Shown here: piece by piece, positions 1-59,243 of the stretch
Position numbering within the stretch: position 1 is the stretch's first letter
Layout of the letters: each line of letters opens with the position of its first letter
Virus record (IMG/VR): IMGVR_UViG_3300032174_000002
Location: 1 to 64,000 of that record
Strand: one strand, 5' to 3'
DNA from: a virus
Length of the DNA: 64,000 nt
Program-made: the position numbers and the translations under genes
Notes under the pieces: generated by a model
Told to the model about the DNA's origin: nothing
The model's database searches: none
Seen by the model: the letters and a program-made list of their open reading frames with translations, nothing else

Positions 1-1182
1 GAGCGCCAGGCTCGCGGCCGCCGCCCGCTCCATGGCCCCGGCGGCCAGGGTCAGCGCCGGTACCAGCTCGACCAGCGCCGCCGCGGAAGCCGCGGACGCC
101 GCCGCTTCGGCGGCCTGCGCCGCGGCCAGCTCTGCCGCCTTGACGCTCGCCGCGGTCTCGATCCCGAGGAGACCGGAGATCGCCTCGGCCAGCGAGAGGA
201 CCATGCCGGCGACCTTGTAGCCAACGAAGGCCCCGACCGCAACGGACAGCGTGTCCCAGTTCTGGGCCATCCACAGCACCAGCTCGCCGACCGTCTTGAT
301 CGCCGTTCCGAGCTCGCCGCCGAGCGACGCCGCCAGGCCCTCGTTCTGCTTCAACCAGTCCGCGATGCCGCCCGAGACCTCGCGGACGGCGGGGATCATG
401 GTCCCGCCGAGCACCTCCATGAAGGCGGCGAGGTCGTTCTTGAGGGCCTCGGCGCTCTCGCCGGCGCCGCGCTGCGCCGCGGCCTGGCCGTTGAGGACGG
501 CCTCGACGCCGCCGAGCACGACCTCGAGCACGCCGGCCTCGTCGCCCATGGCGTGCATGGACTTGATCGACGCCTTCTCGGTGTCGGAGAAGACGACGCC
601 GATCCGCTGCAACTGGGTGACGGTCCCGGTCTCGATGACCCGGCCGAGCTGGATGGCCGCCTGCGGCAGATCGCGCCCCATCTTGGCCGCGAGGTCCGCG
701 ACGTCCTGGGTCACCCGCTCGAAGGTGTCCTCGCCCTTGATGGCCCGGAAGTTGGTGAGCAGGTTCTCGGCCTGGAGGGCGGCCTCGTGCGAGAAGTTGG
801 TCGTCGCCTCGATCTGGTCGGCGATCTCCTGCATCTGGCCGGCGGAGACATGCGCGGCCCCGCCGGTGGCGGTGATCGAGGCCTCGATCTGCCGCAAAGT
901 GGCCTGGTAGTCCTCGGCCTTCGAGACCGCCTCCTCGAGGAAGCGCAGGCCCTCGTAGGCGCCCAGGGTCTCGAGCAGGCGCTTCGCGACTTCATCGACC
1001 TGGGAGATGTGCTCGCCGGCGGACTTGGCCCCGTCCTCGACGTCCTTGAGCCCGGCCTGCCCCTTGGCCGTGGCGTCGGCGACGCTCTGGCCCATCCGCT
1101 CGGCCGCCGACTGGGCCGTCCCGAAGGCGCTCTCGGCGCCATCGGTCGAGAAGGTTATTGGAACGACAAAATCGTCAGCCAC
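1..1182 (-). CDS. Tape measure protein, N-terminal part (cut by window edge)
   Basis: About 394 residues are visible; the rest lies beyond position 1. The protein is a long, Ala/Gln/Glu-rich helical chain (for example QSVADATAKGQAGLKDVEDG near the N-terminus) typical of phage tail-length tape measures. Its position directly after the tail assembly chaperones in transcription order supports the call. The only usable start is GTG at 1182; an in-frame stop lies eight codons upstream and there is no clear Shine-Dalgarno (SD). The start overlaps the 5' end of the HNH gene on the other strand, so that insertion may have replaced the original leader. Confidence 0.85.
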   Translation of the reverse strand, partial: MADDFVVPITFSTDGAESAFGTAQSAAERMGQSVADATAKGQAGLKDVEDGAKSAGEHISQVDEVAKRLLETLGAYEGLRFLEEAVSKAEDYQATLRQIEASITATGGAAHVSAGQMQEIADQIEATTNFSHEAALQAENLLTNFRAIKGEDTFERVTQDVADLAAKMGRDLPQAAIQLGRVIETGTVTQLQRIGVVFSDTEKASIKSMHAMGDEAGVLEVVLGGVEAVLNGQAAAQRGAGESAEALKNDLAAFMEVLGGTMIPAVREVSGGIADWLKQNEGLAASLGGELGTAIKTVGELVLWMAQNWDTLSVAVGAFVGYKVAGMVLSLAEAISGLLGIETAASVKAAELAAAQAAEAAASAASAAALVELVPALTLAAGAMERAAAASLAL

Positions 1183-9008: not shown

Positions 9009-10307
9009 CTAGCTGACGCCGACGCGGAGGATGCGCATCGCCTCGCCGAGAACGACCTGGGCGCCGATGCGCTTCGACATCTTGAAGACCACGTTCGGGT
9101 GCGCGGTCAGCATGTCGCGGATGATCCGGATGCCGCGGCGGTCGACGATCCGGTACGCCCGCTGCCAGTCGGCGAAGGCGACGACGGCCGCCCCGGTGGC
9201 GAAGGTGCCGGCGCCGAAGCCGGTCGGCCCCGGCATCGCGAAGCTCTCGAACCACTTGTAGCCGGCCAAGAGGCTCGGCGCGCCCTCGCGGGTGCTGGGC
9301 TGCCACAGGTAATTGCCGATCGCGTCCTTGAGCTGCATGAGGTAGCCCGCGGTCAGCCGCGAGAAGGTCGCCACCGCGTTGGCCGCGTAGGGGGTCGGCA
9401 GCGAGTAGAAGCAGGCGATCAGCGAGTCCATCGAGATGTCGTTCGCCAGGCCGGAGGGGACGGTGGGGACCTCGCCCCCGTTCTGGTCGGAGGCGGTCAG
9501 GAAGCCCTGCGGCTCGTTGCTGCTGGCGCCGCCGCCGATCACGAAGCGCTGGCCTTCCCAGACGGCGAAGTCCAGTTCGGCATCCGCCCCGATCTCGGCC
9601 TCGAGGTCATAGAGCGTATCCTCGAGCATGGTCAGCGTCACGCCCGGCTCGGCCACCGACTCGTAGATCGGGATCTCGAGCGCCTGGTACATATTGCGAG
9701 GCGTGGTCTCGGTGTTTCGAGTCGCCGTGTCCCGCTGGGAGACGTCGGTGATCGTGAACCGCTGGGTCGAGCGCCGGATAATCCGCAGGCTCCCGGTGCC
9801 GACCGTCGACACGCGGGCATACTGACGGATCGGCGTCACCTGGAGCAGGCGGTGCAGGATGCCCGCTTCCATGGTGGGCGCCGTCAGCACGCCGCCGCCG
9901 GGGTCCGTGTCGGACGACAGCGCCTTCTTCTCCATCCCATTCAGGAGATCCCACTCCTTCGCCTCGAGGGCCTTCTCGCCCTTGCGGAGGTAACGGTCGA
10001 AGGCCTTGTGCTCCTCGTCGCTCTCGACGTACATCTTGGTCGAGCCGCCGCCGGGGATCGGGTCGCCGTGGGCGTCGAGGCGCGGCGCGCGGGCGAGCTT
10101 TTGGATCGCCAGGCTCGCGTTCTCGTTGGCCGCCTTGAGGTTGGTGATCAGGGTTTCCAGCTCGACCACCTTGACGCCGAAGTCCTGCATCTTCTTGGCG
10201 TGCTCGCCCACGTCGCCCTTGATCTTCTCGGTGTCCTCGTGCCACCTGCGCACTTCACCGACCATCTGGTTGAGGTCGTCGACCGCCTTGGTCACTGCCG
10301 CATCCAT
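9009..10307 (-). CDS. Major capsid protein, HK97 fold
   Basis: 432 residues from ATG 10307 with a GAGGAGAAA SD. Residues 1 to about 80 form a coiled-coil delta (scaffold) domain (VDDLNQMVGEVRRWHEDTEK). The HK97 fold follows, with typical segments such as DPGGGVLTAPTMEAGILH, QRDTATRNTETTPRNMYQAL, SSNEPQGFLTA and LAGYKWFESFAMPG. The delta domain would be removed by the protease encoded just upstream. Length and gene order are standard. Confidence 0.95.
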   Translation of the reverse strand: MDAAVTKAVDDLNQMVGEVRRWHEDTEKIKGDVGEHAKKMQDFGVKVVELETLITNLKAANENASLAIQKLARAPRLDAHGDPIPGGGSTKMYVESDEEHKAFDRYLRKGEKALEAKEWDLLNGMEKKALSSDTDPGGGVLTAPTMEAGILHRLLQVTPIRQYARVSTVGTGSLRIIRRSTQRFTITDVSQRDTATRNTETTPRNMYQALEIPIYESVAEPGVTLTMLEDTLYDLEAEIGADAELDFAVWEGQRFVIGGGASSNEPQGFLTASDQNGGEVPTVPSGLANDISMDSLIACFYSLPTPYAANAVATFSRLTAGYLMQLKDAIGNYLWQPSTREGAPSLLAGYKWFESFAMPGPTGFGAGTFATGAAVVAFADWQRAYRIVDRRGIRIIRDMLTAHPNVVFKMSKRIGAQVVLGEAMRILRVGVS

Positions 10308-10317
10308 AGCTTTCTCC

Positions 10318-11799
10318 TCAGAGCCTCGGCGCCATGTCTCGGACACCGTTCAGGTTCGCCACTGCGGCCGTGAGCGCCGCGACCTCTTCCGCCGTCATCT
10401 CTTCGTCGTCGCCACCGCCGGCGGTCTCCAGCTCCGGGTCGGACACCGGCTCGTCCGGCGGGTCCTCCGGCGGTAGCCCGGCCACGACCCGCAGCGAGTC
10501 GGCCGCGTCCTCGAACATGTCGATCGCCTCGAGGATGGTCTCCTCGGCGAGCTCGGCGAACGCCTCCGGGCTGCACAGCCACTGGATCGCCCGCGGCAAC
10601 TGCCACAGGATCTGGCTGATGTCGTCGAGGCTCTTGACCCCGACCACGTTGGCCTGCTCGTCAACCGGGAAGGGGACGAAGCTGTACTCCTTAAGCTTCA
10701 GCGCCTTGAGGTACTGCGCCCGCTGGCCCTGGAAGACGCCCATCTCGGTCCCACCCGGCCGCGGCCGGAAGCCGATCGAGCAGTGCGTCAAGAGGCCATC
10801 CTTGATGTCCGCCAGGGTGTCGCGGCTCTTTTGTGAGCTGCCGAACCGGGAGACGACGAGGCAGCCCTTCGTGTCCTCCTCCATGTGGCGGGGGACGGCG
10901 ACGAGCGAGTTGCGGTCGTGGTTGTAGAGGCCCTTGATGAGTGGCAGGTCCTCAAGGATCGACTGCGCGAAGGCGCCTTTCACGGTCACGTCCCGGTCGA
11001 GGTCGAGGTGCTGGAAGGTGTTGATGTAGTGGGTCGCCTCGCCCTTGCCGGAGTCCTCCTGCTTGACCTCGAACTCGACCGCCAGGCTCTTCGTCAGGTA
11101 GGGGAGCGGGCCGCCGAAGCTGGGGGTGGTGAGGTCGGGTGCGCCCTTGAGCCGGAGCACCGGCCGCCAGATCCGCGCCTTGCCGGAGTCGTCGCTGCCG
11201 ATCGACGAATAGCGCTTGTGGACCTTCGCGGCGATGGCGTCGGCCTGCGCCTGGGTCAGCGTCTTGCCGACCTGCTGCGCGGAGCGGGCGAGCGCGTTGC
11301 GGCCGCGGGCGATCGTGTCGATCGGGTAGGTGCGATCGGGGCCGGCGAAGTCGGCGTCGGAGAGCTTCTTGCGCTGCTTGCCGGAGAGGGCGGCCTTGAA
11401 GGCCGCGGCCGGGTCGCCGCCGAACGCCGTCTGCATCTTCGCCCCCCGCGCCAGAGCTGCCCGCTGCGAGTGCCAGACCGCCCGGTCGTTGTGGTGCTGG
11501 ATCTGCGCTTGCGCGTCGCCCTGGTAGCCGGCTGGCCCCATGGCCGCGGTGCGGAGAGCGTCGGCCGCGGCGGTGTGAGCAACGGCGGCGGTACGGTGGG
11601 CCTTGGCGGCTGCGGCCTTGTCGGTCGAGCTACCGGATTTCAGGGCGCGGTCGGAAGCTACCGTGGCTTCGGCGGAGCGCTTGTGCGCGGTGGCGGGAGC
11701 GGCGGCCCACTTGCCGGCGAGACGGGGATGGCCGGGCGGGACCCCCTTGAGGTCCAGCCCTTCCGCGCCAGCGAAGGCGAGCGTGGTCTGCTCGGGCAT
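10318..11799 (-). CDS. HK97-family prohead protease with long N-terminal extension
   Basis: 493 residues. The serine protease domain spans about 235-390: the His is in LYNHDRNSL (H294) and the nucleophile in LTHCSIGFRP (S341). It is followed by KEYSFVPFPVDEQANV. Residues 1-140 are an Ala/His-rich helical extension. Residues 140-205 hold a separate motif (DADFAGPDRTYPIDTIARGR) often found in phage head proteins. The C-terminal 90 residues are acidic. Typical proteases of this family are near 200 residues, so this is a fusion. It should mature the capsid lattice. Confidence 0.9.
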   Translation of the reverse strand: MPEQTTLAFAGAEGLDLKGVPPGHPRLAGKWAAAPATAHKRSAEATVASDRALKSGSSTDKAAAAKAHRTAAVAHTAAADALRTAAMGPAGYQGDAQAQIQHHNDRAVWHSQRAALARGAKMQTAFGGDPAAAFKAALSGKQRKKLSDADFAGPDRTYPIDTIARGRNALARSAQQVGKTLTQAQADAIAAKVHKRYSSIGSDDSGKARIWRPVLRLKGAPDLTTPSFGGPLPYLTKSLAVEFEVKQEDSGKGEATHYINTFQHLDLDRDVTVKGAFAQSILEDLPLIKGLYNHDRNSLVAVPRHMEEDTKGCLVVSRFGSSQKSRDTLADIKDGLLTHCSIGFRPRPGGTEMGVFQGQRAQYLKALKLKEYSFVPFPVDEQANVVGVKSLDDISQILWQLPRAIQWLCSPEAFAELAEETILEAIDMFEDAADSLRVVAGLPPEDPPDEPVSDPELETAGGGDDEEMTAEEVAALTAAVANLNGVRDMAPRL

Positions 11800-11826
11800 C
11801 CTGGCGGGTAGTGTCGTCCCGCCTGG

Positions 11827-11838
11827 TGTCTACCTCTG
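11827..11838. promoter_or_regulatory. 12-bp element shared with 26134-26145
   Basis: TGTCTACCTCTG occurs here, upstream of the protease gene, and again upstream of the Ig-like protein gene near 26.1 kb. Both copies are intergenic and followed a few bases later by CCGTC. It is a candidate phage-specific control site. Confidence 0.4.
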
Positions 11839-11852
11839 TCTACCGTCCACCA

Positions 11853-11966
11853 TTGGGGAAGAACGCGGCCCTGGCTGGGGAATAACCGCCAGGGCCTGGG
11901 GAAAGACCCTGAATCGCTGGGGAAAAACCCTGTCGGGTTGGGGAAGAACTACGCCCGCTGGGGACT
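11853..11966. repeat. Six iteron-like repeats, TGGGGAA(N)AAC, spaced about 21 bp
   Basis: The GGGG cores begin at 11855, 11877, 11898, 11919, 11940 and 11960, i.e. spacings of 22, 21, 21, 21 and 20 bp. Most units read TTGGGGAAGAAC or CTGGGGAAAAAC on the plus strand. The array covers the 3' end of the gene at 11949 and the leader of the prohead protease gene. Spacing of two helical turns puts every copy on the same face of the DNA, as in operator or packaging/origin arrays. Confidence 0.8.
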
Positions 11967-12347
11967 CGGCTGGCGCTTGACCGCCACTCGGCGCCGCCCT
12001 TCGAGCGCGGCCGCGTCCCAGGCCAGCTTGAATTCCCGGTCGGAAGCCGACGCCTTGTAGGCCATCCCGCGGCTCACGCCGACAAAGTCGCAGGCCGCCG
12101 CAACGCCCCGCCCGGCGGCGAGCTCGGCCAGGAACCGGACCCGCCAGCCGCCTGGCTCGGCCGCCTGGTCCTGCGCCTCGACCGCCGCGTCCGGGGGCCA
12201 GGTGGTGCGGAGCCAGCCCTCGATCCCGGGGATCGGGCAGCCGTGGAGCTTCCACCAGACGCCGGCGACCAAGAGGGCGGCCCTCTCCCTGGCGATGCCG
12301 ACGCGGCGGGCCTCGAGGAGGACGATGGAGAGGTCGGGGAGGTCCAT
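11949..12347 (-). CDS. HTH protein resembling small terminase / DNA-binding adaptors
   Basis: 132 residues from ATG 12347. The C-terminal half contains a helix-turn-helix-like segment (AAACDFVGVSRGMAYKASAS) followed by KLAWDAAALEGRRR. This layout is frequent in phage small terminase-like proteins. The stop lies inside the helix-phased repeat array, so it could be the array's binding partner. Another small terminase candidate lies at 23869. Confidence 0.6.
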   Translation of the reverse strand: MDLPDLSIVLLEARRVGIARERAALLVAGVWWKLHGCPIPGIEGWLRTTWPPDAAVEAQDQAAEPGGWRVRFLAELAAGRGVAAACDFVGVSRGMAYKASASDREFKLAWDAAALEGRRRVAVKRQPSPQRA

Positions 12348-22235: not shown

Positions 22236-23720
22236 CTACCCTCCCTGCGCCGCTCTCGGCGCTGCTCGGCCGAAGCTGTAGTGCCTCGACGCCTTGGGGC
22301 TCAGCCCGGCAAGCTCGAACATCAGCCACGTAGCAGCATCTAAACGATTGGGGCTCGCCTCGCCGCGCTTGCCGGTGTACGACAGCATCTCATCTTCCAG
22401 CTTTCGGAGATGGTCGTAGGTGTAGAGCCGCTTCTTCGGGTCCCACTTCGCGACGTGGTGGACGCGCCCCTGCTCGTAGAGGGCAGACACCGGCTCGGCC
22501 CGCGCCATCTTGTTGACCGCGGCGTGGACCTTGCGGACGGGGAGGTTGATGTTCGCGCCGCGGAGCGTCGACTCCACCAGGTCGCCGCCGTTGTTCACCT
22601 CGGCCACCAGGCGGTCGCCAGCGATCTCCGCCATCAGCGCCGCGGCCGAGCTCGCCCAGGCCTCGGCCGGCATCACGCCGGACCAGTCGTCGGTGATGTA
22701 GAAGTGGGGCGGCGCCGGCTTGGCGGGAGGGGCCACGGCCCGCGCCAGACCTCGCTTGCCGGCCACGATGCCGCACTCGTCCGACGCCGACGTCGCCGTC
22801 ACCGACGGGTCCAGCCCAACCACCACCCGGTCGATCTCCTCCTCCCACCACTCGCCGTCCTCGCCCGCCGGCGCCTTCACCCGGTGAGCCGGCACTCGCT
22901 CGACTCGGTGGTCGTTGATCATGCCCCAGGTCCAGAGAGCGCCCGGCACGTCCTCGAGGATCTCGGCGGCCAACTCCTGGCGCCCCAGGCGCGTGCCTTC
23001 CATCGGTGCCACGACCTCCTCGATAAACTCGGCCGCCAGGTTGGCCTCGTTCTCCCTGGTATGGCCGCGGGTCACGATCGTGCTGGCCTTGGCCATCAAC
23101 TCGCGAAGCAGCTTGATCGGCTTCGGGGTGGTGGTGATGAGGATCTGCGGCTGGCCCTTGCGGCACATCAGGAGCAGGTTCGACCAGACCTCTTCGAGGC
23201 GCTTGTAGGCGGCGAGCTCGTCCGCCCAGAAGCCGTCGAGGTTGGGGCCGCGGAAGCGGTCCGGTTCGTCGGCGGAGAACAGGTGGGCCTTCGCCCCGTT
23301 GTCCCAGGTGATCGTTCGCTTTGTGGGCTCGTAGCGGGGTCGGAAGGCCGGGTCCGAGCAGGCAAGGATGCCGGTCGGTCCCTCGACCACGACGCCGCGG
23401 AGGTCACCCGCCGTCGGAGCCGACACCCCGAAGCGCTTCCACTCTCCCGCCTCCACCTTGTCGAGGACGGCGTTTGACCCGACTTTCGTCTTTCCCCAGC
23501 CGCGCCCGGCCAGCCACATGAGGATGAAGAACCCGCACGCCGGCAGGAACTGCCCGTTGCTCCGCTCGTCCCGGTCGAGCGTCGGGTTCCGCGGTCGTCC
23601 GGCCCCCTCCTGGCCCACCGCATGCCAGCGCTTCCGCCTCTCGGTGTCGAGAGGAGCGTTCCTGAGCATGAAGAGGCGCCAGAACTCCTGGCGGAGGGGG
23701 ATGGGGGAGAGGGCGGGCAT
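22236..23720 (-). CDS. Terminase large subunit
   Basis: 494 residues from ATG 23720. The ATPase has a Walker A variant AGRGWGKT (71-78) and a Walker B with catalytic Glu in DGFWADELAAY (D167, E168). The RNase H-like nuclease has GLDPSVT, then EVNNGGDLV and NRLDAATW, matching the three acidic clusters. It pumps DNA through the portal and cuts it. It follows a small terminase candidate at 23869. Confidence 0.95.
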   Translation of the reverse strand: MPALSPIPLRQEFWRLFMLRNAPLDTERRKRWHAVGQEGAGRPRNPTLDRDERSNGQFLPACGFFILMWLAGRGWGKTKVGSNAVLDKVEAGEWKRFGVSAPTAGDLRGVVVEGPTGILACSDPAFRPRYEPTKRTITWDNGAKAHLFSADEPDRFRGPNLDGFWADELAAYKRLEEVWSNLLLMCRKGQPQILITTTPKPIKLLRELMAKASTIVTRGHTRENEANLAAEFIEEVVAPMEGTRLGRQELAAEILEDVPGALWTWGMINDHRVERVPAHRVKAPAGEDGEWWEEEIDRVVVGLDPSVTATSASDECGIVAGKRGLARAVAPPAKPAPPHFYITDDWSGVMPAEAWASSAAALMAEIAGDRLVAEVNNGGDLVESTLRGANINLPVRKVHAAVNKMARAEPVSALYEQGRVHHVAKWDPKKRLYTYDHLRKLEDEMLSYTGKRGEASPNRLDAATWLMFELAGLSPKASRHYSFGRAAPRAAQGG

Positions 23721-23728
23721 GGAACCAG

Positions 23729-23869
23729 CTAGCCGTGATCGATGGCGACCACGAAGCGGCGAGGGTCGAGCCCGCGGCACCGATTCGAGAGGGTGGCGAA
23801 CTCGGGCGGCCAAGACCGCACCTCGTCCCTGTCCACGAACCAGTCGGTCACCTCGCGCGTGGTCGCCAT
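23729..23869 (-). CDS. 46-residue protein between terminase genes
   Basis: Starts MATTREVTDWFVDRDEVRSW; acidic and aromatic. The start overlaps the upstream stop (TGATG). No family recognised. Confidence 0.5.
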   Translation of the reverse strand: MATTREVTDWFVDRDEVRSWPPEFATLSNRCRGLDPRRFVVAIDHG

Positions 23870-24813
23870 CAGTTAGCTACCTCCCCCGGCGTCATCACCG
23901 GCGCCATCCGCTTCACGTCCACCAAGAACCTGGAATGCGCCTTGCGCTCCTCTGCCTCCGCGACCTCGGGTGCCAGCATCGCCGCCAACGCCGCCGACTT
24001 CGCGGCCTCGAAGCCGGCCCTGTAGATCCCTGCCTCCACGCTGCCGGGAGGATAGGGCAGCTCGAGCGGGCAGAGCAGCGCCTCCACGGCCGCCTTCGCC
24101 TGCGCCAGCAGCGCTTTGATCGCCGCGGCCTGCTGGTGGAGAGTCTCCTGCACCATATCGGCATACCGGACCACCAGCATCTGCAGCTCCTCGAGCGTCA
24201 GCACCGCCCGGGCCCGGACTGCGATCTTGGTCTCGGTGTCGACCAGGCGGCGGGACGTTTCGATCGTTCGCCGGGCCTCTCCTTCTGCCTGGATCGCGGC
24301 CTGCCGGCGCTGCTCGGCGGTCGCCCCGGCCTCGAGCGCCGCCTCGAGCCGGGCGAGGATGCGGACCGCGGCATCGGGGTCGCCAGCGACAGCTTGGAGC
24401 TCGTCCAGGATCTCCCGGGCCTCGAGCAGCGCGGCGCCGATCGCGGCCACGGCCGCCCCGGAGCCAGTGCGCTTCATCTGCTCCGAGAGCAGGAGGGCGG
24501 CGAGCGCCTTCTCTTCGACCAGCTGCGCGGCCTGGGGGTCGGCGAGCAGGCGCTGGTGGGCCTCCCGCAGCTCTTCCGGGATGGCGAGGGCATACTTGCT
24601 GTACGCACCCGTCTTGTAGTTGCCGTTCGCCGGCCCGACCGGGTTTCGACCGCCGTGGCGCCAACAGCGGTCCCTGCCGGGCTCGCAGGGCTTCTTGCAT
24701 GGCGTCCCGCCTGGGATGCCGCGGCGGGCGTGACCTTTGATGGGGAAGTTGCAGCGGGGGCGCCCCCCTAATTTCAGAGCGCGGTCCTGCGGTTCGGAGC
24801 CTGGATCTGCCAT
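23869..24813 (-). CDS. Terminase small subunit candidate
   Basis: 314 residues. The N-terminus carries the pattern typical of many small terminase-type phage proteins: two Cys pairs, CWRHGGRNPVGPANGNYKTG and AYSKYA. The rest is long Ala/Glu/Arg helices suited to oligomerisation. Encoded one small gene upstream of the large terminase. Confidence 0.65.
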   Translation of the reverse strand: MADPGSEPQDRALKLGGRPRCNFPIKGHARRGIPGGTPCKKPCEPGRDRCWRHGGRNPVGPANGNYKTGAYSKYALAIPEELREAHQRLLADPQAAQLVEEKALAALLLSEQMKRTGSGAAVAAIGAALLEAREILDELQAVAGDPDAAVRILARLEAALEAGATAEQRRQAAIQAEGEARRTIETSRRLVDTETKIAVRARAVLTLEELQMLVVRYADMVQETLHQQAAAIKALLAQAKAAVEALLCPLELPYPPGSVEAGIYRAGFEAAKSAALAAMLAPEVAEAEERKAHSRFLVDVKRMAPVMTPGEVAN

Positions 24814-26419: not shown

Positions 26420-26613
26420 CACACCCCTTTGGCGAGCGGCCGCTGCGGGAGAGACTGCCACCGGGCCGCGTGCTGGACCGGCTGGCCGCTGGTGGGCGCG
26501 GTCAGCTGGATCGGGATCTTGCCGGCCTGCTGGCCGCCCACCAGGCAGGGATGGCCGCGGGTGGCTCCGCAGTGCGGGCAGGGGACGGAGAGGGCGGCGG
26601 CGGGGTCGGTCAT
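26419..26613 (-). CDS. Zinc-ribbon protein
   Basis: 64 residues. CPHCGATRGHPCLVG at residues 12-26 is the short zinc motif common in phage accessory proteins. It overlaps queC by four bases, so it may be co-translated with it. Confidence 0.65.
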   Translation of the reverse strand: MTDPAAALSVPCPHCGATRGHPCLVGGQQAGKIPIQLTAPTSGQPVQHAARWQSLPQRPLAKGV

Positions 26614-27182
26614 CGGTCCTGCCTGCACGAGTCGCACTCTCCGCACTGCGTACCGTCCTGGCGCGGCTCGTAGCAAGACCAGGTGTCGGCGATCACCACC
26701 TGAAGTGCGACCGCGAGCGCGCGGACTTCGGAGCGCAGCATACCAACGAGCGGCGCGCGGACGACAACGCCGCCGTCGAGCGCGAGGACGACCGAGAGAG
26801 CCGCCGCGAATTCCGGCCGGCAGTCAGGATAGCTCGCCTGGTCCGCGCCACTGGCGCCATACCAGACCTCCCGGGCTCCGATCTCCGGTGCCGAACTGGC
26901 CGCCAGCGCAATCAGGATCAGGTTCCGGCAGGGGATGACTCGCGGCCCGGAGGCGCCGACGCCATTCGCCAGGGCCGCCGCGGCCGGGAATGCGGCTCGC
27001 AGTTCGACTAGGCGGCTACCATTCCTGCCGCACCAGCGCTGGGCAGCTTCGCGCTCCTGTTCCACCGCCGGCTGGCCGTAGTCCACAAACGCCGCGGCGG
27101 CCAGGCGACCGGCTCGCGCCGCGATCGTCGCCAGCACTGTCGAGTCCAGGCCACCGGAGAACAGGACCGCCACGTCCTTCAT
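26610..27182 (-). CDS. queC: 7-cyano-7-deazaguanine (preQ0) synthase
   Basis: 190 residues. The N-terminus has the PP-loop VLFSGGLDSTV (6-16) and the C-terminus the zinc site formed by C170, C180, C183 and C186. QueC converts carboxy-deazaguanine to preQ0 using ATP and ammonia. In phages it supplies preQ0 for DNA modification. It overlaps the DpdA-like gene by four bases (ATGA). No folE, queD or queE is seen here, so the precursor would come from the host or from genes outside the window. Confidence 0.85.
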   Translation of the reverse strand: MKDVAVLFSGGLDSTVLATIAARAGRLAAAAFVDYGQPAVEQEREAAQRWCGRNGSRLVELRAAFPAAAALANGVGASGPRVIPCRNLILIALAASSAPEIGAREVWYGASGADQASYPDCRPEFAAALSVVLALDGGVVVRAPLVGMLRSEVRALAVALQVVIADTWSCYEPRQDGTQCGECDSCRQDR

Positions 27183-30426: not shown

Positions 30427-30436
30427 CGGAGGTGGT

Positions 30437-30515
30437 GGTCAGCGCGGGAGGATTTGAACCTCCGACCCCTCGCTCCCAGGGCGAGTGCTCCGGCCAAGCT
30501 GAGCTACGCGCTGAC
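30437..30515 (-). tRNA. tRNA-Pro (TGG anticodon), unusual C33
   Basis: Acceptor GTCAGCG pairs with CGCTGAC; T-arm GGAGG-TTCAAAT-CCTCC; variable loop GGGTC as in bacterial tRNA-Pro. Anticodon stem CTCGC/GCGAG encloses CCTGGGA, giving anticodon TGG. The base before the anticodon is C rather than the near-universal T. CCA is not clearly encoded. The T33 loss leaves some doubt about function. Confidence 0.85.
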
Positions 30516-30798: not shown

Positions 30799-30876
30799 TG
30801 GTTGCGCGGGCCCGAGTCGAACGGGCGACCTGTAGGTTATGAGCCTACCGAGCTTCCACGGCTGCTCCACCGCGCA
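30799..30876 (-). tRNA. Initiator-type tRNA-fMet (CAT anticodon)
   Basis: The D-arm TGGAGCAGCC and loop CTCATAA closely follow bacterial tRNA-fMet. It has the initiator mark A11-T24 in the D-stem and a weak first acceptor pair (T1-A72); CCA is encoded. The anticodon stem is GTAGG/CCTAC, so it keeps two of the three G-C pairs typical of initiators. Confidence 0.85.
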
Positions 30877-37168: not shown

Positions 37169-37347
37169 GATCCCCGCAGGTTGATGCTCGGGCTTCCGGG
37201 AAGGATTCGCTCGACCTTGAGCCGCCCCTGGCAGGGATCGCAGCCGGCCGGCTTGTCCCCGCACATACCGCCACGCCTCCGGCTAGCAAACCCCTCGAGC
37301 CATCGACAGCCGCAGCGTTCGCAGATCAGGTGGACGTCGGCCTTCAT
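37156..37347 (-). CDS. Zinc-ribbon protein
   Basis: 63 residues. CERCGCRW and MCGDKPAGCDPC form the metal site. Overlaps the helicase loader gene by four bases and ends its operon. Confidence 0.6.
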   Translation of the reverse strand: MKADVHLICERCGCRWLEGFASRRRGGMCGDKPAGCDPCQGRLKVERILPGSPSINLRGSRLS

Positions 37348-38093
37348 GGAGCCGCCATGAGCGATCCCTGGACCGCCGCGAGGCTCAGATCGGCGACGAG
37401 GCCGCCGACGATGCGCCGGTAGAAGCCGTCCCCCCACTCCCGCAATTCCTCATCCCCGAGATTGGTGGTGATGATCGTCGGCCGGCTCTGCGACTGCCGC
37501 TCCTCGAGCAGCGTCCAGACCCGCTCATGGCGGTTGTAGGAGAACGACTCCCGCCGGCGCAGGTCGTCGATGACCAGGATGCCGGCGCAGGCGTAGTTCA
37601 TCATCGCCTCGTCCTGGAAGGCGTCGAGGTTCAACTGGTGGGCGGGGAGCCAGCGGCCGATCCGGCCGGCGCGCAGCACCTCGTCGAACATGGCGGCCGC
37701 GATGTGGGTCTTGCCGATGTTTGAGACGCCGCGGACCAGGAGGATGGGCAGGTAGCTCTCGTCGCGCGTCCAGAACCGGAAGGCGGCCACGGCGGGCGGC
37801 ATCCGCATCCGGCTGCCATCCCAGGTCTCCCAGGTCATCCGGCAGTAGGAGGCGGGGACGCCAGACCGGCGCCGGTCGTCGCGCGCCTTGTCGGGGTTGA
37901 AGTGCATGAAGGTCGCCTCGCTCTTGCACTTCTCGCAGCCGCCGTTCGCGAGCTCGTACTGCGTCATCGCGGCACCGCACGGACAGAGTTTGCCGCTCGG
38001 CGAGCCGAGCCACCGCTCGATCCCCTCAGTGCTGGTCTCGGGACAGCGGCTCGCCACGTCCCGGTAGTGCCGGGGGGCTATCGATGGCTGCAT
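37344..38093 (-). CDS. DnaC-like helicase loader ATPase
   Basis: 249 residues. A zinc motif (C37, C39, C53, C56) precedes an AAA+ core: Walker A GVSNIGKTH (122-130), Walker B ILVIDD (172-177), and sensor 1 PTIITTN. It should load a replicative helicase, host or phage. The start lies inside the end of the preceding repeat-containing gene. Confidence 0.82.
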   Translation of the reverse strand: MQPSIAPRHYRDVASRCPETSTEGIERWLGSPSGKLCPCGAAMTQYELANGGCEKCKSEATFMHFNPDKARDDRRRSGVPASYCRMTWETWDGSRMRMPPAVAAFRFWTRDESYLPILLVRGVSNIGKTHIAAAMFDEVLRAGRIGRWLPAHQLNLDAFQDEAMMNYACAGILVIDDLRRRESFSYNRHERVWTLLEERQSQSRPTIITTNLGDEELREWGDGFYRRIVGGLVADLSLAAVQGSLMAAP

Positions 38094-39111
38094 CTCGGTT
38101 CTCCTGTGGTTTCTTGAACATGCCGGCAGCTTCCATGCGTCGGATCTCCGCCTCGGCGCGGGATGCCTCGGCGGGGCTCATCTCGCGCGGTTTGAGGGTG
38201 CCTGGCGGCAGTTGGTTCTCGCGGGGGACGTCGAAGCGGCGGCCTTGAAGGCCTGACCCCGGCCGCGATGCGCCGTTCCCGTTCGCCGCTCGCTCGGTCG
38301 GTTGGTGATCCTGGGTGTCTCCGCACCGCTTGCCGAGCCAGGTGGCCATCCCCTCGTAGGTGCGTCGCTTGGCAGCGTGGTTGCGCGACCAGAGACGCAG
38401 GGCGGACAGGCGCTGCCGCACATCGACCCCCGGATAGGCGCGCTCGAGCTCGCTGACCAGGGCCGCTCTGACGCCGTACTCCACGGCCGAGCCGGCGTGC
38501 CCCCACCGCTCGTCTGGCGCCAGGCCTGCTGAGGACGTGTCCGCCAACTCCCTCCTCGGAGCCAAGTAGTGATCGGCGAGTTTCGGCGGCTGACCAGCGA
38601 TCGGGATCCAGATCACCACGTCGGGGGCGCCCCCCGGCGGCCCCTTTCGCCGCTCAGCATCGTGCTCGCGCGCGCTGCTGCCGAGCCGAGGAGCGGGAGG
38701 GGTAAGGGGTGGGGATTGGGGGGTCTGGGGGGAAGGGGGCGGGGATGGGGGGGGTGAGGGGTCATGCCCATCTCTCCGGTGCCCTGCCGGTGCCCTGCCG
38801 GTGCCCTGCCGGTGCCCTGCCGGTGCTACGGCTGTGCCATCAGCCTGCCGGTGCCCTGCCGGTGCCCTGCCGGTGCCCTGCCGGTGCCCTGCCGGTGCTA
38901 CGGCTGTGCCATCAGCCTGCCGGTGCCCTGCCGGTGCTACGGCTGTGCCCTGGCCGGTGCCAGGAGCGTCAGCATACGGCGTCCCCGCTGAATCAAGCGC
39001 CGCCTGAAGTAGCTGGCGAACGACCTCGGCGATACCAATGCCGCGGCGCCTCGCCTCAATCTCGAGCCGGAAGAGCACCGGCTCCGGTAAGTCGAGCGTG
39101 CGCTGCTTCAT
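38026..39111 (-). CDS. Probable replication initiation protein with repeat linker
   Basis: 361 residues. The N-terminus is a short helix unit (FRLEIEARRRGIGIAEVVRQ). Residues 50-115 are a degenerate 11-residue repeat (GRAPAGHRQGT) encoded by 11-bp tandem repeats; a Pro-rich stretch follows. The C-terminal domain holds LSALRLWSRNHAAKRRTYEG and GMATWLGKRCGD, like the helicase-loader partner of other phages. Overlaps the DnaC-like gene by 68 bases. Confidence 0.65.
   Translation of the reverse strand: MKQRTLDLPEPVLFRLEIEARRRGIGIAEVVRQLLQAALDSAGTPYADAPGTGQGTAVAPAGHRQADGTAVAPAGHRQGTGRAPAGHRQADGTAVAPAGHRQGTGRAPAGHRRDGHDPSPPPSPPPSPQTPQSPPLTPPAPRLGSSAREHDAERRKGPPGGAPDVVIWIPIAGQPPKLADHYLAPRRELADTSSAGLAPDERWGHAGSAVEYGVRAALVSELERAYPGVDVRQRLSALRLWSRNHAAKRRTYEGMATWLGKRCGDTQDHQPTERAANGNGASRPGSGLQGRRFDVPRENQLPPGTLKPREMSPAEASRAEAEIRRMEAAGMFKKPQENRDAAIDSPPALPGRGEPLSRDQH
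38778..38960. repeat. 11-bp tandem repeats in a 72-bp higher-order unit
   Basis: GGTGCCCTGCC is repeated four times (38778-38821), then a 28-bp spacer. The whole 72-bp block repeats at 38850-38921 and a shortened third block follows. Since 11 is not a multiple of three, gain or loss of one unit would shift the host gene's frame. Confidence 0.85.
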
Positions 39112-53874: not shown

Positions 53875-54065
53875 GGGCCCTCTCCCGCCTCGCCAGGCAT
53901 CTCGGCAAACGGACGCGCTGGTGCCTGTTCGTGGCAGCGAGCGCGGCCACCGCCAACCGCCTCGGGACCTGGCCTGCGCCAGCGGACTGCGCCAGCCGCG
54001 CCGATGAGCTCGAGGCCGAGTATCAGGAGCGCTTCGGCAGGAAGCGCAAGAAGGGGGCTGCTTGA
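53871..54065 (+). CDS. Small basic protein
   Basis: 64 residues from GTG, coupled to both neighbours. A short helix (RLARHLGKRTRWCLFVAASA) and a charged end. Placed just before the HerA-like gene. Confidence 0.5.
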   Translation: MRALSRLARHLGKRTRWCLFVAASAATANRLGTWPAPADCASRADELEAEYQERFGRKRKKGAA

Positions 54066-55789
54066 CCGTGAAGTTGCATCTCGCCGCCGACCTGGCCCTA
54101 CCGCTCGACGCCTGCACGCAGACCTTCCTGGTGGTCGGCAAGCGCGGGAGCGGCAAGACCAACACCTGCGGTCGGCTCGCCGAGCAGCTGCATCACGCGA
54201 AGCTGCCCTTCGTCGTAGTCGACCCGGTGGACTCGTGGTGGGGCCTCAAGGCGGCGCAGGACGGCCGCGGGCCCGGTCTCGACGTCTACGTCTTCGGCGG
54301 CAGCCATGCCGACCTGCCGCTCGAGGCGACCGGCGGCAGCTTGGTCGCCGACGTCGTGATCGAGAACCGCATCTCGGCCATCCTCTCGATCAAGCACTTC
54401 AGCGGCCGGGAGCGCTCCCGTTTCGTCTCCGACTTCGCCGACCGGTTGTTCCGCAAGAACGCCGGCGAGCCGGTGCATCTCTTCCTCGAGGAGGCCCACG
54501 AGGTGGCGCCGCAGCAGATCCCGAAGCGCGAGGGCGCCGAGGAGATGCTGGGCCGGGTGACGCGGATCTGGAAGCTCGGCCGCTCTTCGGGGATCGGCGG
54601 CTCCGCGATCACGCAACGGCCGGCCAGCTTGTCGAAGAACATCACGACCCAGGCCGAGATTCTGATCGTGCATCGCCTGATCGGCCCGCAGGACGTGGCC
54701 GCCATCAAGGAGTGGATCAAGTACCACGGCGAGAGCGAGGAGATCCTGCCGACCCTCTCTGGCCTCAAGACCGGCGAGGCGTGGGTGTGGGCCCCCGACT
54801 TCCCGGAGAGCGCGCCGATCGGGCTGCGCCGGGTGCAGATCCTGAAACGCGAGACGTTCGACTCCTCGGCAACTCCTACCGGCCACCGCGTCGAGCCGCG
54901 GGAGTTGGCGCCGGTCGACATCGCCGGCATCAGCTCGAAGATGGCGGCCACGATCGAGCGAGCGAAGGCCGAGGACCCGAAGGAGTTGCGGCGGCGGATC
55001 GCGGAGCTCGAGCGCGCGCTGGTGGTGGCCGAGAAGAAGGCGGCGGTCGAGCCGATCGTCACCCAGCGCGTCGAGGTGCCGGTCCTGGCGCTGGACATCG
55101 CTGTGCGCCTGACCCGCGACGCCGGCGCCATCCAGGCGGCGGCCGAGGGGATGGCGAGGACGGCGGCCGAGATCGCTGCGGGAGTTCAGCGAGCGCAGGC
55201 CGCAGGCGAGGCGGCCACGCGCCGGCCCATCGCGGCACCAGCGCCCGTCCGTGCCGCGGTCCCGCGGCAGGCACCCCATGCGCGCGCCACCCAGCCGCGG
55301 CAGGGAGGCCCCGCACCTGCCGAGAACGGTCGCCTCCCCGTCGGCGAGCGCCGCATCCTGACCGCCATCGCTCAGTACCCGGAGGGGGCGAGCCGCGAAC
55401 AGCTGACCATCCTCACCGGCTACAAGCGGTCCTCGCGAGACACCTACCTTCAGCGCCTCGGGGCTCGCGGCCTGGTCGACGCCGCCGGTGGCGGCATGCT
55501 GATGGCCACCGGCGCAGGCATGGCCGCCCTTGGCGATGACTTCGAGCCCCTCCCGACCGGAGCGGCCCTGCAGTCCTACTGGCTCGACCGGCTCCCGGAG
55601 GGCGAGCGCCGCATCCTCGCCATCCTGATCGGCGCCTATCCGCGGGCGGTGCAGCGGCCCGACCTCGACGAGGCGACTGGCTACAAGCGCTCGAGCCGTG
55701 ACACCTACTTGCAGCGGCTGGGCTCGCGCCGGCTGATCACGGCCGCCGGGCCCGGCGAGGTGCGGGCGAGCGAGGGGCTGTTCGGATGA
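54062..55789 (+). CDS. HerA/FtsK-like ATPase with duplicated winged helices
   Basis: 575 residues from TTG 54062. Walker A is GKRGSGKT (26-33), and Walker B with acidic residues is LFLEEAHEVAPQ near 145. A Gln/Arg-rich sensor (ITQRPASLSKNITTQAE) follows. The C-terminal part holds two near-identical units GYKRSSRDTYLQRLG (about 20 residues of each repeat identical), probably DNA-binding winged helices. Such pumps move or segregate DNA; in this context it may serve replication, partition or a defence-like role. Confidence 0.78.
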   Translation: MTVKLHLAADLALPLDACTQTFLVVGKRGSGKTNTCGRLAEQLHHAKLPFVVVDPVDSWWGLKAAQDGRGPGLDVYVFGGSHADLPLEATGGSLVADVVIENRISAILSIKHFSGRERSRFVSDFADRLFRKNAGEPVHLFLEEAHEVAPQQIPKREGAEEMLGRVTRIWKLGRSSGIGGSAITQRPASLSKNITTQAEILIVHRLIGPQDVAAIKEWIKYHGESEEILPTLSGLKTGEAWVWAPDFPESAPIGLRRVQILKRETFDSSATPTGHRVEPRELAPVDIAGISSKMAATIERAKAEDPKELRRRIAELERALVVAEKKAAVEPIVTQRVEVPVLALDIAVRLTRDAGAIQAAAEGMARTAAEIAAGVQRAQAAGEAATRRPIAAPAPVRAAVPRQAPHARATQPRQGGPAPAENGRLPVGERRILTAIAQYPEGASREQLTILTGYKRSSRDTYLQRLGARGLVDAAGGGMLMATGAGMAALGDDFEPLPTGAALQSYWLDRLPEGERRILAILIGAYPRAVQRPDLDEATGYKRSSRDTYLQRLGSRRLITAAGPGEVRASEGLFG

Positions 55790-57092: not shown

Positions 57093-57234
57093 GCTGGAGC
57101 ATCTCCGGCAGACCGGGCGAGAGAGCGTACCAGCCAAGTTCCTGGGCTCGCGCACGGCCGCCCGGGTCGAGCAGGAGAGCAACGGCCCGCGCGCCCTGGC
57201 CGCTGCGCCGCCGGCGGGAAGACGGCCAGCGTGA
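56935..57234 (+). CDS. Helical protein of unknown function
   Basis: 99 residues from ATG 56935 with GGAGAGGAAG SD. Helices LEDLRELLFSAAERLEKADG and a basic tail. Overlaps the end of the HNH gene. Confidence 0.65.
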   Translation: MPKTRTLEDLRELLFSAAERLEKADGDALEAELKRAKATGEIGKVLIATGRLELEHLRQTGRESVPAKFLGSRTAARVEQESNGPRALAAAPPAGRRPA

Positions 57235-57272
57235 AACCTGTGGGAACGCTTGATCCTGAAAGGAACCCGTAC

Positions 57273-59243
57273 ATGACCGAACCAGCCACCAGTCCCGTCG
57301 GCCAACTGCTCCCGATCACCCACCTCCACCCCAACCCCTGGAGCAAGCGCCGGAAGAGCGCCGCGACGGCCAAGGAGGACGCCGAGCTCGCCGCCAGCGT
57401 CCGCGAGCTGGGGATCCTGGAGAACCTCCTGGTGCGCCCGCTCCCAGAGGACGCCGCGAAGGAGTTGAAGCTCAAGGACCCGGCCGGTCACTACCAGGTG
57501 GTCGCCGGCAAGCGCCGCCTGCAAGCCGCCCTCGACGCCGGGCTCGACCTGGTGCCCTGCACGGTCCGCGACCTCGACGACCACCGGGCGCGCGTCATCA
57601 CCATCTCGGAGAACCTGCACCGGCTGGACATCCACTGGCTCGACGAGGCGCAGGGCGTCGCCGGGCTGCTCGAGGAGTTTGGAAACCAAGAAGCGGTCGC
57701 CGTCGAGCTCGGCCGCTCGGTTGGCTGGGTGGCGCGCCGCAAGCGCCTGCTCGATCTCTCGCCGGCCTGGCTGGCGATCGCCGAGGACCCGGAGGGGCAG
57801 CCCGAGACCTCCATGAAGGGCTTCGCCGCGGCCTGGGGAACCGCCCACTTCGAGCAGATCGCCATCCTCGAGACGGAGGCCCAGGACGACATTCTCGAGC
57901 CGCAGATGCAGTGGCAGCTCCGGGACGCCCGCACCGCCGGGCAGCTGGCCCAGCTGATCGCCGCCCGCACTCGCGCGCTGTCCTCGTTCCCGTGGCCGTT
58001 GAGGGACGCCGAGCTCTACCCGGCGGCCGGCGCCTGCTCGACCTGCCCGATGCGCTCGTCGCAGAATCCCGGCCTCTTCGACGACCAGGAGGCGGCCGAG
58101 GGCGGCAAGCCCACCAAGAAGCCGCGGGGCCACGGCGCCGACCGCTGCCTGAACCCGAAGTGCGCCGACGAAAAGGCCCGGCGCTTCGTCGAGCGCCGCC
58201 ACGCCGAGCTGAAGGCGGAACACTCGAAGGTGCTGTTGATCAAGGGCGACGGCCACGACGCGCGCCAGGCGCCGGCGGGGGCCATCAACAGCTGGGAGGT
58301 CCAGAAAGTCAAGGAGGGCGACAAGGGCGCCGTGCCGGCCGTGATCGCGTCGGGCCGGGACGCCGGCCGGGTGCAGTGGGTCAAGCCGCCCTCCTCGGGC
58401 CGCGCCGAGAGAGCCGCCACCAAGGCCGCCGGCGGCAAACCGGAGAAGACGCCGCTCGCCGACCGGAAGGCCGCGCTCGCCCGCCGGCGGATGGGCCACG
58501 CGATCGATGCCATGAAGGCCGCGATCGTCCAGCAGCCGGCGCCGGCGCTCGAGGTCTGCATCCGCTTGGCGATCACGGCCGGGACGAAGCAGGCGAACGA
58601 CGCGACCGGCGGCTACCACTACGGCTTCGACGAGCTGCTGCCGCGGTGCGAAGGGAACACCGCCCACGAGGCCCGGCGGCTGCTGCTCGCCGGCACCGGC
58701 CAGAACGATACGATCGTGGGGGAACTCGAAGACCGGGCAGACCGCGAAGAGAACGCGGCGGCCAGCCATCGCGATCGCCGCGACACCTCGGCGCGTGTGT
58801 GGGAATCCTTTGTGGCCCTCGGCCAGTTCACCGGGGGCGTTGACGCTACCGCCGAGATGCTCGCCGCTTACCTCTGGGCGCGCGTTCTCCCGACGCTCTA
58901 CGGCCGGATGACGCCGACCGGGATGCCGGATCACGTGAAAGTGGCCTACGCTGAGGCCGAGAGGACCGCCGCCCTGGTCGGGCTCAAGGCCAAGGTCTAC
59001 CTCGAGCAGGCCACCGTAGCGTTGCCCGATCCGAAGGGCTGGGCGAAGGAGGAGGCCGAGGAGGCGGCGAAGAAGCCGGCGCGCGAGCCCAAGCAGAAGA
59101 AGGCCCCTCGTGCGGTGCGCGAGAAAGCCAAGAGGGAAGCCATGCCGCCGATCACTGATGAGGCCGCGCGGCTGATCCACTCGCTCCACCCGCCGGCGAA
59201 GGCCAAAGGGAAGGCCGGCCGCGGTAAGAAGGCGAAGTCGTGA
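57273..59243 (+). CDS. ParB/Srx-like protein with zinc region, 656 residues
   Basis: ATG 57273 has SD AAAGGAA; the frame is open to GTG 57231. The N-terminal domain (1-130) fits ParB: DAELAASVRELGILENLLVR, YQVVAGKRRLQAALDAG, TISENLHRLDIHWLDEAQ. An HTH follows (AVELGRSVGWVARRKRLL). The middle has CSTCPMRSSQNPGLF and CLNPKCADEKA, a Cys pattern in large plasmid/phage ParB relatives. Lys-rich C-terminus. Could bind DNA for partition or regulation. Confidence 0.8.
   Translation: MTEPATSPVGQLLPITHLHPNPWSKRRKSAATAKEDAELAASVRELGILENLLVRPLPEDAAKELKLKDPAGHYQVVAGKRRLQAALDAGLDLVPCTVRDLDDHRARVITISENLHRLDIHWLDEAQGVAGLLEEFGNQEAVAVELGRSVGWVARRKRLLDLSPAWLAIAEDPEGQPETSMKGFAAAWGTAHFEQIAILETEAQDDILEPQMQWQLRDARTAGQLAQLIAARTRALSSFPWPLRDAELYPAAGACSTCPMRSSQNPGLFDDQEAAEGGKPTKKPRGHGADRCLNPKCADEKARRFVERRHAELKAEHSKVLLIKGDGHDARQAPAGAINSWEVQKVKEGDKGAVPAVIASGRDAGRVQWVKPPSSGRAERAATKAAGGKPEKTPLADRKAALARRRMGHAIDAMKAAIVQQPAPALEVCIRLAITAGTKQANDATGGYHYGFDELLPRCEGNTAHEARRLLLAGTGQNDTIVGELEDRADREENAAASHRDRRDTSARVWESFVALGQFTGGVDATAEMLAAYLWARVLPTLYGRMTPTGMPDHVKVAYAEAERTAALVGLKAKVYLEQATVALPDPKGWAKEEAEEAAKKPAREPKQKKAPRAVREKAKREAMPPITDEAARLIHSLHPPAKAKGKAGRGKKAKS

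What the first reader, a model, noticed from the sequence alone, without database searches (positions are those of the whole stretch)
11853..11966. Helix-phased 21-bp repeat array between HTH gene and capsid protease gene
Six copies of TGGGGAA(N)AAC occur at 20-22 bp spacing, two turns of DNA, so all face one side. They span the 3' end of a small-terminase-like HTH gene and the leader of the capsid protease gene. Possible roles: pac/cos-type packaging site, replication iteron, or operator for late head genes. Spacing and identity are seen; function is inferred. In the minus frame it also encodes a heptad-like FPQ repeat, but coding bias does not support translation.
Basis: partly seen in the sequence, partly recalled or inferred. 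Interest (0 to 1): 0.72.

Follow-up and report, generated by a model that had tools for sequence, protein, structure and literature searches.

The report
Phased repeat array beside terminase-like gene
An uncultivated phage and its one known relative both carry, in a single gap between two head genes, a row of five to six short DNA words spaced two helix turns apart, best read as the docking strip for a DNA-binding protein, most likely the one that marks the genome for packaging.

Summary
The array is real: five copies of GTTNTTCCCCA (minus-strand reading) at 11949-11854, spaced 21-22 bp, plus a decayed sixth at 11959. It is the only such chain in the 85-kb genome and exceeds all Markov controls. 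Decisive new evidence: a relative (G001/L004; head proteins 79-86% identical) has the same array in the same gap. Site by site the word cores are 94% identical, spacers 33%, synonymous sites 60-71%; the spacing is kept. That is the footprint of a protein-binding array, not of a gene or an RNA. Two GGTANACA words and a perfect 9-bp inverted repeat abutting the protease ATG follow, in both genomes. The adjacent 132-aa gene has a TerS-type DNA-binding domain (PHROG 4044, E=2e-4), but at its C-terminus, and another gene occupies the usual TerS place before TerL. Best reading: a packaging-recognition (pac/cosB-like) site bound by that protein (about 0.45); next, an operator for the head genes (about 0.25). 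A replication origin is unlikely: a better candidate lies at 38.8 kb. Similar arrays in unrelated phages are at chance level. Binding and genome ends could not be tested.

The parts
11939..11949 (-). binding word copy 1, GTTCTTCCCCA (overlaps the stop codon of the HTH gene by one base)
11918..11928 (-). binding word copy 2, GTTTTTCCCCA
11897..11907 (-). binding word copy 3, GTCTTTCCCCA
11876..11886 (-). binding word copy 4, GTTATTCCCCA
11854..11864 (-). binding word copy 5, GTTCTTCCCCA
11959..11964 (-). decayed copy 0 (TCCCCA) inside the 3' end of the HTH gene; a better copy (TCTTCCCCA) in the relative
11827..11844 (-). pair of GGTANACA words 10 bp apart; G to C in both copies in the relative
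11800..11826 (-). perfect 9-bp inverted repeat CCAGGCGGG-N9-CCCGCCAGG ending at the base before the protease ATG; possible cut site, operator or translational hairpin
11949..12347 (-). 132-aa protein with TerS-type HTH at its C-terminal end; proposed binder of the array
   Evidence: PHROG 4044 E=1.9e-4; model and viral structure neighbours
10318..11799 (-). prohead protease (Peptidase_S78)
9009..10346 (-). major capsid protein (HK97 type)
22236..23813 (-). terminase large subunit
23869..24813 (-). rival candidate for the small terminase by position (314 aa, weak HGGxSTG-domain match, conserved in the relative)

Best explanation
The array is a set of five to six binding sites for one DNA-binding protein, two helix turns apart so that all face one side of the DNA. 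It most likely works as the packaging-recognition site of the phage (pac- or cosB-like): the TerS-type HTH protein encoded just upstream (11949-12347), acting as a multimer, docks its DNA-binding domains on the GTTNTTCCCCA words and marks this single place for the terminase, which starts or ends packaging nearby, possibly at the conserved inverted repeat before the protease gene. Shown: the sites, their phasing, their uniqueness in the genome, and their word-by-word conservation in a relative. Inferred: that the neighbouring protein binds them, and that the outcome is packaging. Separate confidences: protein-binding array about 0.9; neighbour is the binder about 0.55; role is packaging about 0.45.
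For: Cores of five orthologous sites 47/50 identical, spacers 10/30 (p=9e-9), synonymous positions 60-71%. Words unique to this locus in the 85-kb genome and in the 41.6-kb relative record, as expected for a packaging site. The neighbour gene matches a TerS family in both genomes, and many of its nearest viral structures are named small terminase. Distant relatives without the array have TerS before TerL instead. Published packaging sites also hold repeats in or beside terS: SPP1 pac (PMC4737164), lambda cosB R1-R3 (PMC4856287, PMC6739421); P22 pac lies in its TerS gene (PMC9611059).
Against: The site is 3' of the gene and some 10 kb from TerL, in the middle of the late operon. The 132-aa protein has its DNA-binding domain at the C-terminus and no obvious ring-forming domain after it; another gene (23869-24813) sits in the usual TerS place. 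PHROG 4044 also weakly matches another HTH protein of this genome (E=0.0033). Structural matches are all above E=0.05. No genome end is visible: the record closes as a circle. Only two genomes carry the array, and the distant-relative absence is uninformative alone.
Confidence: 0.45

Rival explanations
1. Operator or enhancer for the head genes: a phage regulator (the 132-aa HTH protein or another) binds the phased sites upstream of a secondary promoter and tunes expression of protease, capsid and later genes, with the GGTANACA pair and the inverted repeat as promoter-proximal elements.
For: The array lies directly upstream of the protease-capsid genes; two-turn phasing is typical of activator arrays (general knowledge); the last site ends 55 bp before the ATG; the downstream block is conserved too.
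Against: No sigma-70-like promoter (the scan would miss other promoter types); no second copy of the word array elsewhere in the genome.
Confidence: 0.25
2. Replication origin: the words are iterons bound by an initiator.
For: Same-orientation direct repeats of about 20 bp are the usual form of iterons (general knowledge).
Against: No replication gene nearby; local GC is 66% and the gap is not among the most AT-rich stretches; GC-skew extremes of the record lie near 20.9 and 72.8 kb, not here; a tandem-repeat block inside ORF 38026-39111 next to a DnaC-like loader fits better.
Confidence: 0.08
3. Partition (centromere-like) site bound by a ParB-like protein of the phage.
For: The phage encodes a 670-aa ParB-like protein at 57231-59243; centromeres can be direct-repeat arrays.
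Against: That gene is 45 kb away (about 39 kb the other way round the circle); ParB sites of this domain type are usually palindromic and the word is not (general knowledge).
Confidence: 0.05
4. RNA element or coding repeat: the array acts in the transcript as a leader structure, or is translated as a seven-residue FPQ repeat.
For: The period of 21 is seven codons; the protease frame is open across the array in the relative; the inverted repeat folds over the protease start.
Against: RNA fold of the array z=-0.99; no Rfam match above cut-off; spacings differ by 1 bp between genomes, which shifts the frame, and the window has an in-frame stop. The small hairpin at the ATG could still be a translational element on its own.
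Confidence: 0.05
5. Neutral tandem duplication with no function.
For: Tandem repeats are common; unrelated phages show TTCCCCA arrays as often as the reversed control pattern.
Against: In the relative the cores are held at 94% while spacers drift to 33% with spacing kept; neutral decay would not spare the words.
Confidence: 0.04

Closest known systems
SPP1/SF6 pac region (direct repeats spanning the start of the small terminase gene; PMC4737164)
   Same: Direct repeats at a small-terminase gene, one site per genome, proposed TerS target.
   Different: SPP1 repeats are at the 5' end and promoter of terS; here the array is at the 3' end, before the protease gene, with shorter words in strict 21-bp phase.
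Lambda cosB (R3, R2, R1 sites bound by TerS next to cosN; PMC4856287, PMC6739421)
   Same: Several copies of a TerS word beside a possible dyad cut site.
   Different: Lambda has three R sites (with an IHF-bend site, from general knowledge) next to a known cosN and upstream of terS-terL; here five to six evenly phased words, no mapped cut, TerL 10 kb away.
HK97 cos (15-bp TerS site with a specific G and an A-tract; PMC11331095)
   Same: G-plus-A-rich recognition word in an HK97-type head system.
   Different: HK97 has one minimal 15-bp site; here five to six words, and the TerS-like proteins are not shown to be homologous.
Plasmid/phage replication iterons (general knowledge)
   Same: Same-orientation direct repeats at about 20 bp.
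   Different: No initiator gene next to it; another locus in this genome is the better origin candidate.

Membership tests
pac/cosB-like packaging site | In or next to a small-terminase gene | tested here: inconclusive
   Adjacent gene matches TerS PHROG 4044 at E=1.9e-4, but domain order is unusual and a second candidate precedes TerL
pac/cosB-like packaging site | One site per genome | tested here: met
   Array only here in 85 kb, and only here in the relative's 41.6-kb record
pac/cosB-like packaging site | Conserved site in related phages | tested here: met
   47/50 core positions identical in one relative
pac/cosB-like packaging site | Bound by TerS | not testable with these tools
   Needs a gel shift or footprint
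pac/cosB-like packaging site | Genome ends or cut at or near the site | not testable with these tools
   No reads; the assembly closes as a circle
Replication iterons | Located at an initiator gene or AT-rich origin region | tested here: not met
   No replication gene adjacent; repeat block by the DnaC-like loader at 38.8 kb instead
Operator of a regulon | Copies upstream of other operons | tested here: not met
   No second array in the genome; a dedicated single operator is not excluded
Operator of a regulon | A promoter next to the sites | tested here: inconclusive
   No sigma-70-like promoter, but the host and its promoter type are unknown

The most novel reading that the evidence does not exclude
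The block is a composite cos-like site inside the head operon: a phased row of TerS-like words (cosB-like), two GGTANACA words and a perfect inverted repeat that is the cutting site, so that the packaged chromosome begins or ends between the TerS-like gene and the capsid protease, recognised by a small protein whose DNA-binding domain is at its C-terminus.
Probability: 0.17. Interest if true: 0.5.

Novelty: new member of a known kind. Interest (0 to 1): 0.36.

Why it matters
How small terminases find their genome is unsettled: wrapping around a ring, channel binding and lateral interdigitation have all been proposed, and several pac sites bind their TerS only weakly in vitro (PMC9611059, PMC11331095, PMC7672466). 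Five to six near-identical, helix-phased and clearly constrained words next to a TerS-like gene would be a clean substrate to test whether such a protein engages several equally spaced sites at once. If it is instead an operator, it would show how a phage sets head-gene dosage within a long late operon.

Tried and rejected
(1) Wider occurrence: a three-copy pattern scan of IMG/VR gave five contigs: the relative and four unrelated phages with TTCCCCA arrays. A shared site class was considered, since L007's array is about 600 bp upstream of a TerS gene and L006's directly follows a small gene of unknown family, but the reversed control pattern also gave five hits, so this is chance level. (2) More relatives: HTH, capsid and protease searches of viral contigs and genomes gave only G001 plus weak (30-47% over short stretches) matches; the phage and plasmid collections held none close. 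(3) DNA similarity of the gap to phages: nothing meaningful. (4) RNA structure and Rfam: no support. (5) DNA hairpin GGCCCTGGC...GCCAGGGCC around copy 4: not kept in the relative, so incidental. (6) A-tract bending: the middle base is free and most tracts are interrupted, so not the conserved feature. (8) Searches used wrong frames and are void.

Full report
Setting. The window is part of a virus record of 85,090 bases, 70% GC. The record has identical 127-base ends, so it closes as a circle of 84,963 bases. The late genes run on the minus strand: TerL 23813-22236, portal 19297-17627, a Mu F-like head protein 15658-14654, a 132-aa HTH gene 12347-11949, prohead protease 11799-10318 and HK97-type capsid 10346-9009. 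The finding sits in the 149-base gap between the HTH gene and the protease gene.

The observation. On the + strand TGGGGAANRAC stands at 11854, 11876, 11897, 11918 and 11939, with TGGGGA alone at 11959. Read in the direction of the genes, the word is GTTNTTCCCCA. A chain of five identical 7-mers at 20-22 bp occurs nowhere else in the genome; sixty order-1 Markov genomes reach 2 or, twice, 3. Other spacings in the same genome give 2-3, except for a separate 11-bp repeat at 38.8 kb.

Conservation. One close relative was found in the viral collection (IMGVR_UViG_3300032180_000020, G001; loci L004/L010): portal 86%, capsid 81%, protease 79% and HTH protein 74% identical. It has the array in the same gap. 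Anchored on the words, the ten fixed positions of five orthologous sites agree in 47 of 50 cases, the middle base in 1 of 5, and spacer positions in 10 of 30. Synonymous third positions of the neighbouring genes agree in 60-71%. Core versus spacer gives p=9e-9 and core versus synonymous p=5e-5; sites within one array are not independent and this is one pair of genomes, so the p-values are guides only. The spacings are 21,21,21,22 in the window and 21,21,22,22 in the relative: words and phase are kept while the spacer letters are not. A row of protein-binding sites evolves in this way. A reading frame would be broken by the 1-bp difference, and the window has a stop in the frame that is open in the relative. 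The RNA fold shows no excess.

What else is conserved. Between the last copy and the protease ATG both genomes hold two GGTANACA words 10 bp apart (G in both copies here, C in both copies there) and CCAGGCGGG-N9-CCCGCCAGG, which ends at the base before the ATG. The inverted repeat is 26/27 identical, but about 5% of 27-column windows in this stretch are as good, so its conservation alone is not remarkable; its perfect symmetry and its position are the reasons to list it. It would form a hairpin of about -14 kcal/mol over the start region. It could be a cutting site, a promoter-proximal operator or a translational hairpin; the data do not decide.

The neighbour gene. The 132-aa protein matches with support only TerS PHROG 4044, over residues 70-114 (E=1.9e-4; both homologues match). 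A caution: another HTH protein of this genome (39816-40682) also matches that family weakly, among many HTH families. The model (mean pLDDT 67.5) is all helical, with an HTH at about 68-102 and a long helix to 124. The best PDB neighbour, phBC6A51 (2ao9), is not significant (E=4.9). Viral-structure neighbours over about 57-66 residues at 1-2 A include many proteins named small terminase, all at E above 0.05. Against a plain TerS label: known TerS proteins carry this domain at the N-terminus, here it is at the C-terminus; and a gene with a weak HGGxSTG match stands where TerS usually stands, before TerL. In distant relatives TerS is before TerL and there is no phased array in the stretches read. 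I therefore write 'TerS-like'.

Mechanism. Five to six near-identical, non-palindromic, same-orientation words at two-turn spacing call for a protein that offers several identical DNA-binding domains on one side, such as a ring or a row of monomers. A TerS-like protein encoded next door fits, and a single site per genome fits packaging. Published packaging sites of a similar kind are the SPP1 pac repeats around the start of terS (PMC4737164), P22 pac within terS (PMC9611059) and lambda cosB with R3-R2-R1 (PMC4856287, PMC6739421); HK97 TerS reads a G and an A-tract in a 15-bp site (PMC11331095). It should be said that in SF6 the repeats were not found to direct TerS binding (PMC4737164), so repeats beside terS are not proof. 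The place, 3' of the gene and 10 kb from TerL, is unusual, and no genome end could be seen. I put packaging at 0.45, a dedicated operator for the head genes at 0.25, and the other readings at 0.04-0.08 each.

Controls. Four unrelated phages carry TTCCCCA arrays of similar period, one about 600 bp upstream of a TerS gene. The same pattern reversed also gives five hits, so they are not counted as evidence. A replication origin is better placed at 38776-38961, inside ORF 38026-39111 beside a DnaC-like loader.

Verdict. A real, constrained, helix-phased binding array, of a known kind, in an unusual position and with an unproven binder. Interest is moderate.

Noticed in passing
38697-38961: G-rich run followed by an 11-bp/72-bp tandem repeat (CCGGTGCCCTG) inside ORF 38026-39111(-), which begins with a ribbon-helix-helix-like stretch, next to a DnaC-like helicase loader (37344-38093): a lambda O/P-like candidate origin.
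   Followed up: partly
26610-27182: QueC-like gene (Pfam PF06508, E=4e-38), possibly for 7-deazaguanine modification of phage DNA.
   Followed up: no
54062-55789: 575-aa HerA-like ATPase on the + strand that matches a PHROG named terminase large subunit (E=4e-18), in addition to the TerL of the late operon.
   Followed up: no
57231-59243: 670-aa protein with a ParB N-terminal domain.
   Followed up: no
window 1-127 and record 84964-85090: The record's two ends are identical over 127 bases, so the genome closes as a circle of 84,963 bases.
   Followed up: partly
23869-24813: 314-aa gene before TerL with a weak HGGxSTG-domain match, conserved in the relative (41%); it may be the true small terminase.
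   Followed up: partly
L007:11718-11766 and L006:525-573: Unrelated phages with TTCCCCA arrays at 21-bp period; in L007 about 600 bp upstream of a TerS gene, in L006 right after a small gene of unknown family. The reversed control pattern gives as many hits.
   Followed up: partly
30436-30513 and 30799-30876: Two tRNA genes, tRNA-Pro(TGG) and tRNA-Met(CAT).
   Followed up: no
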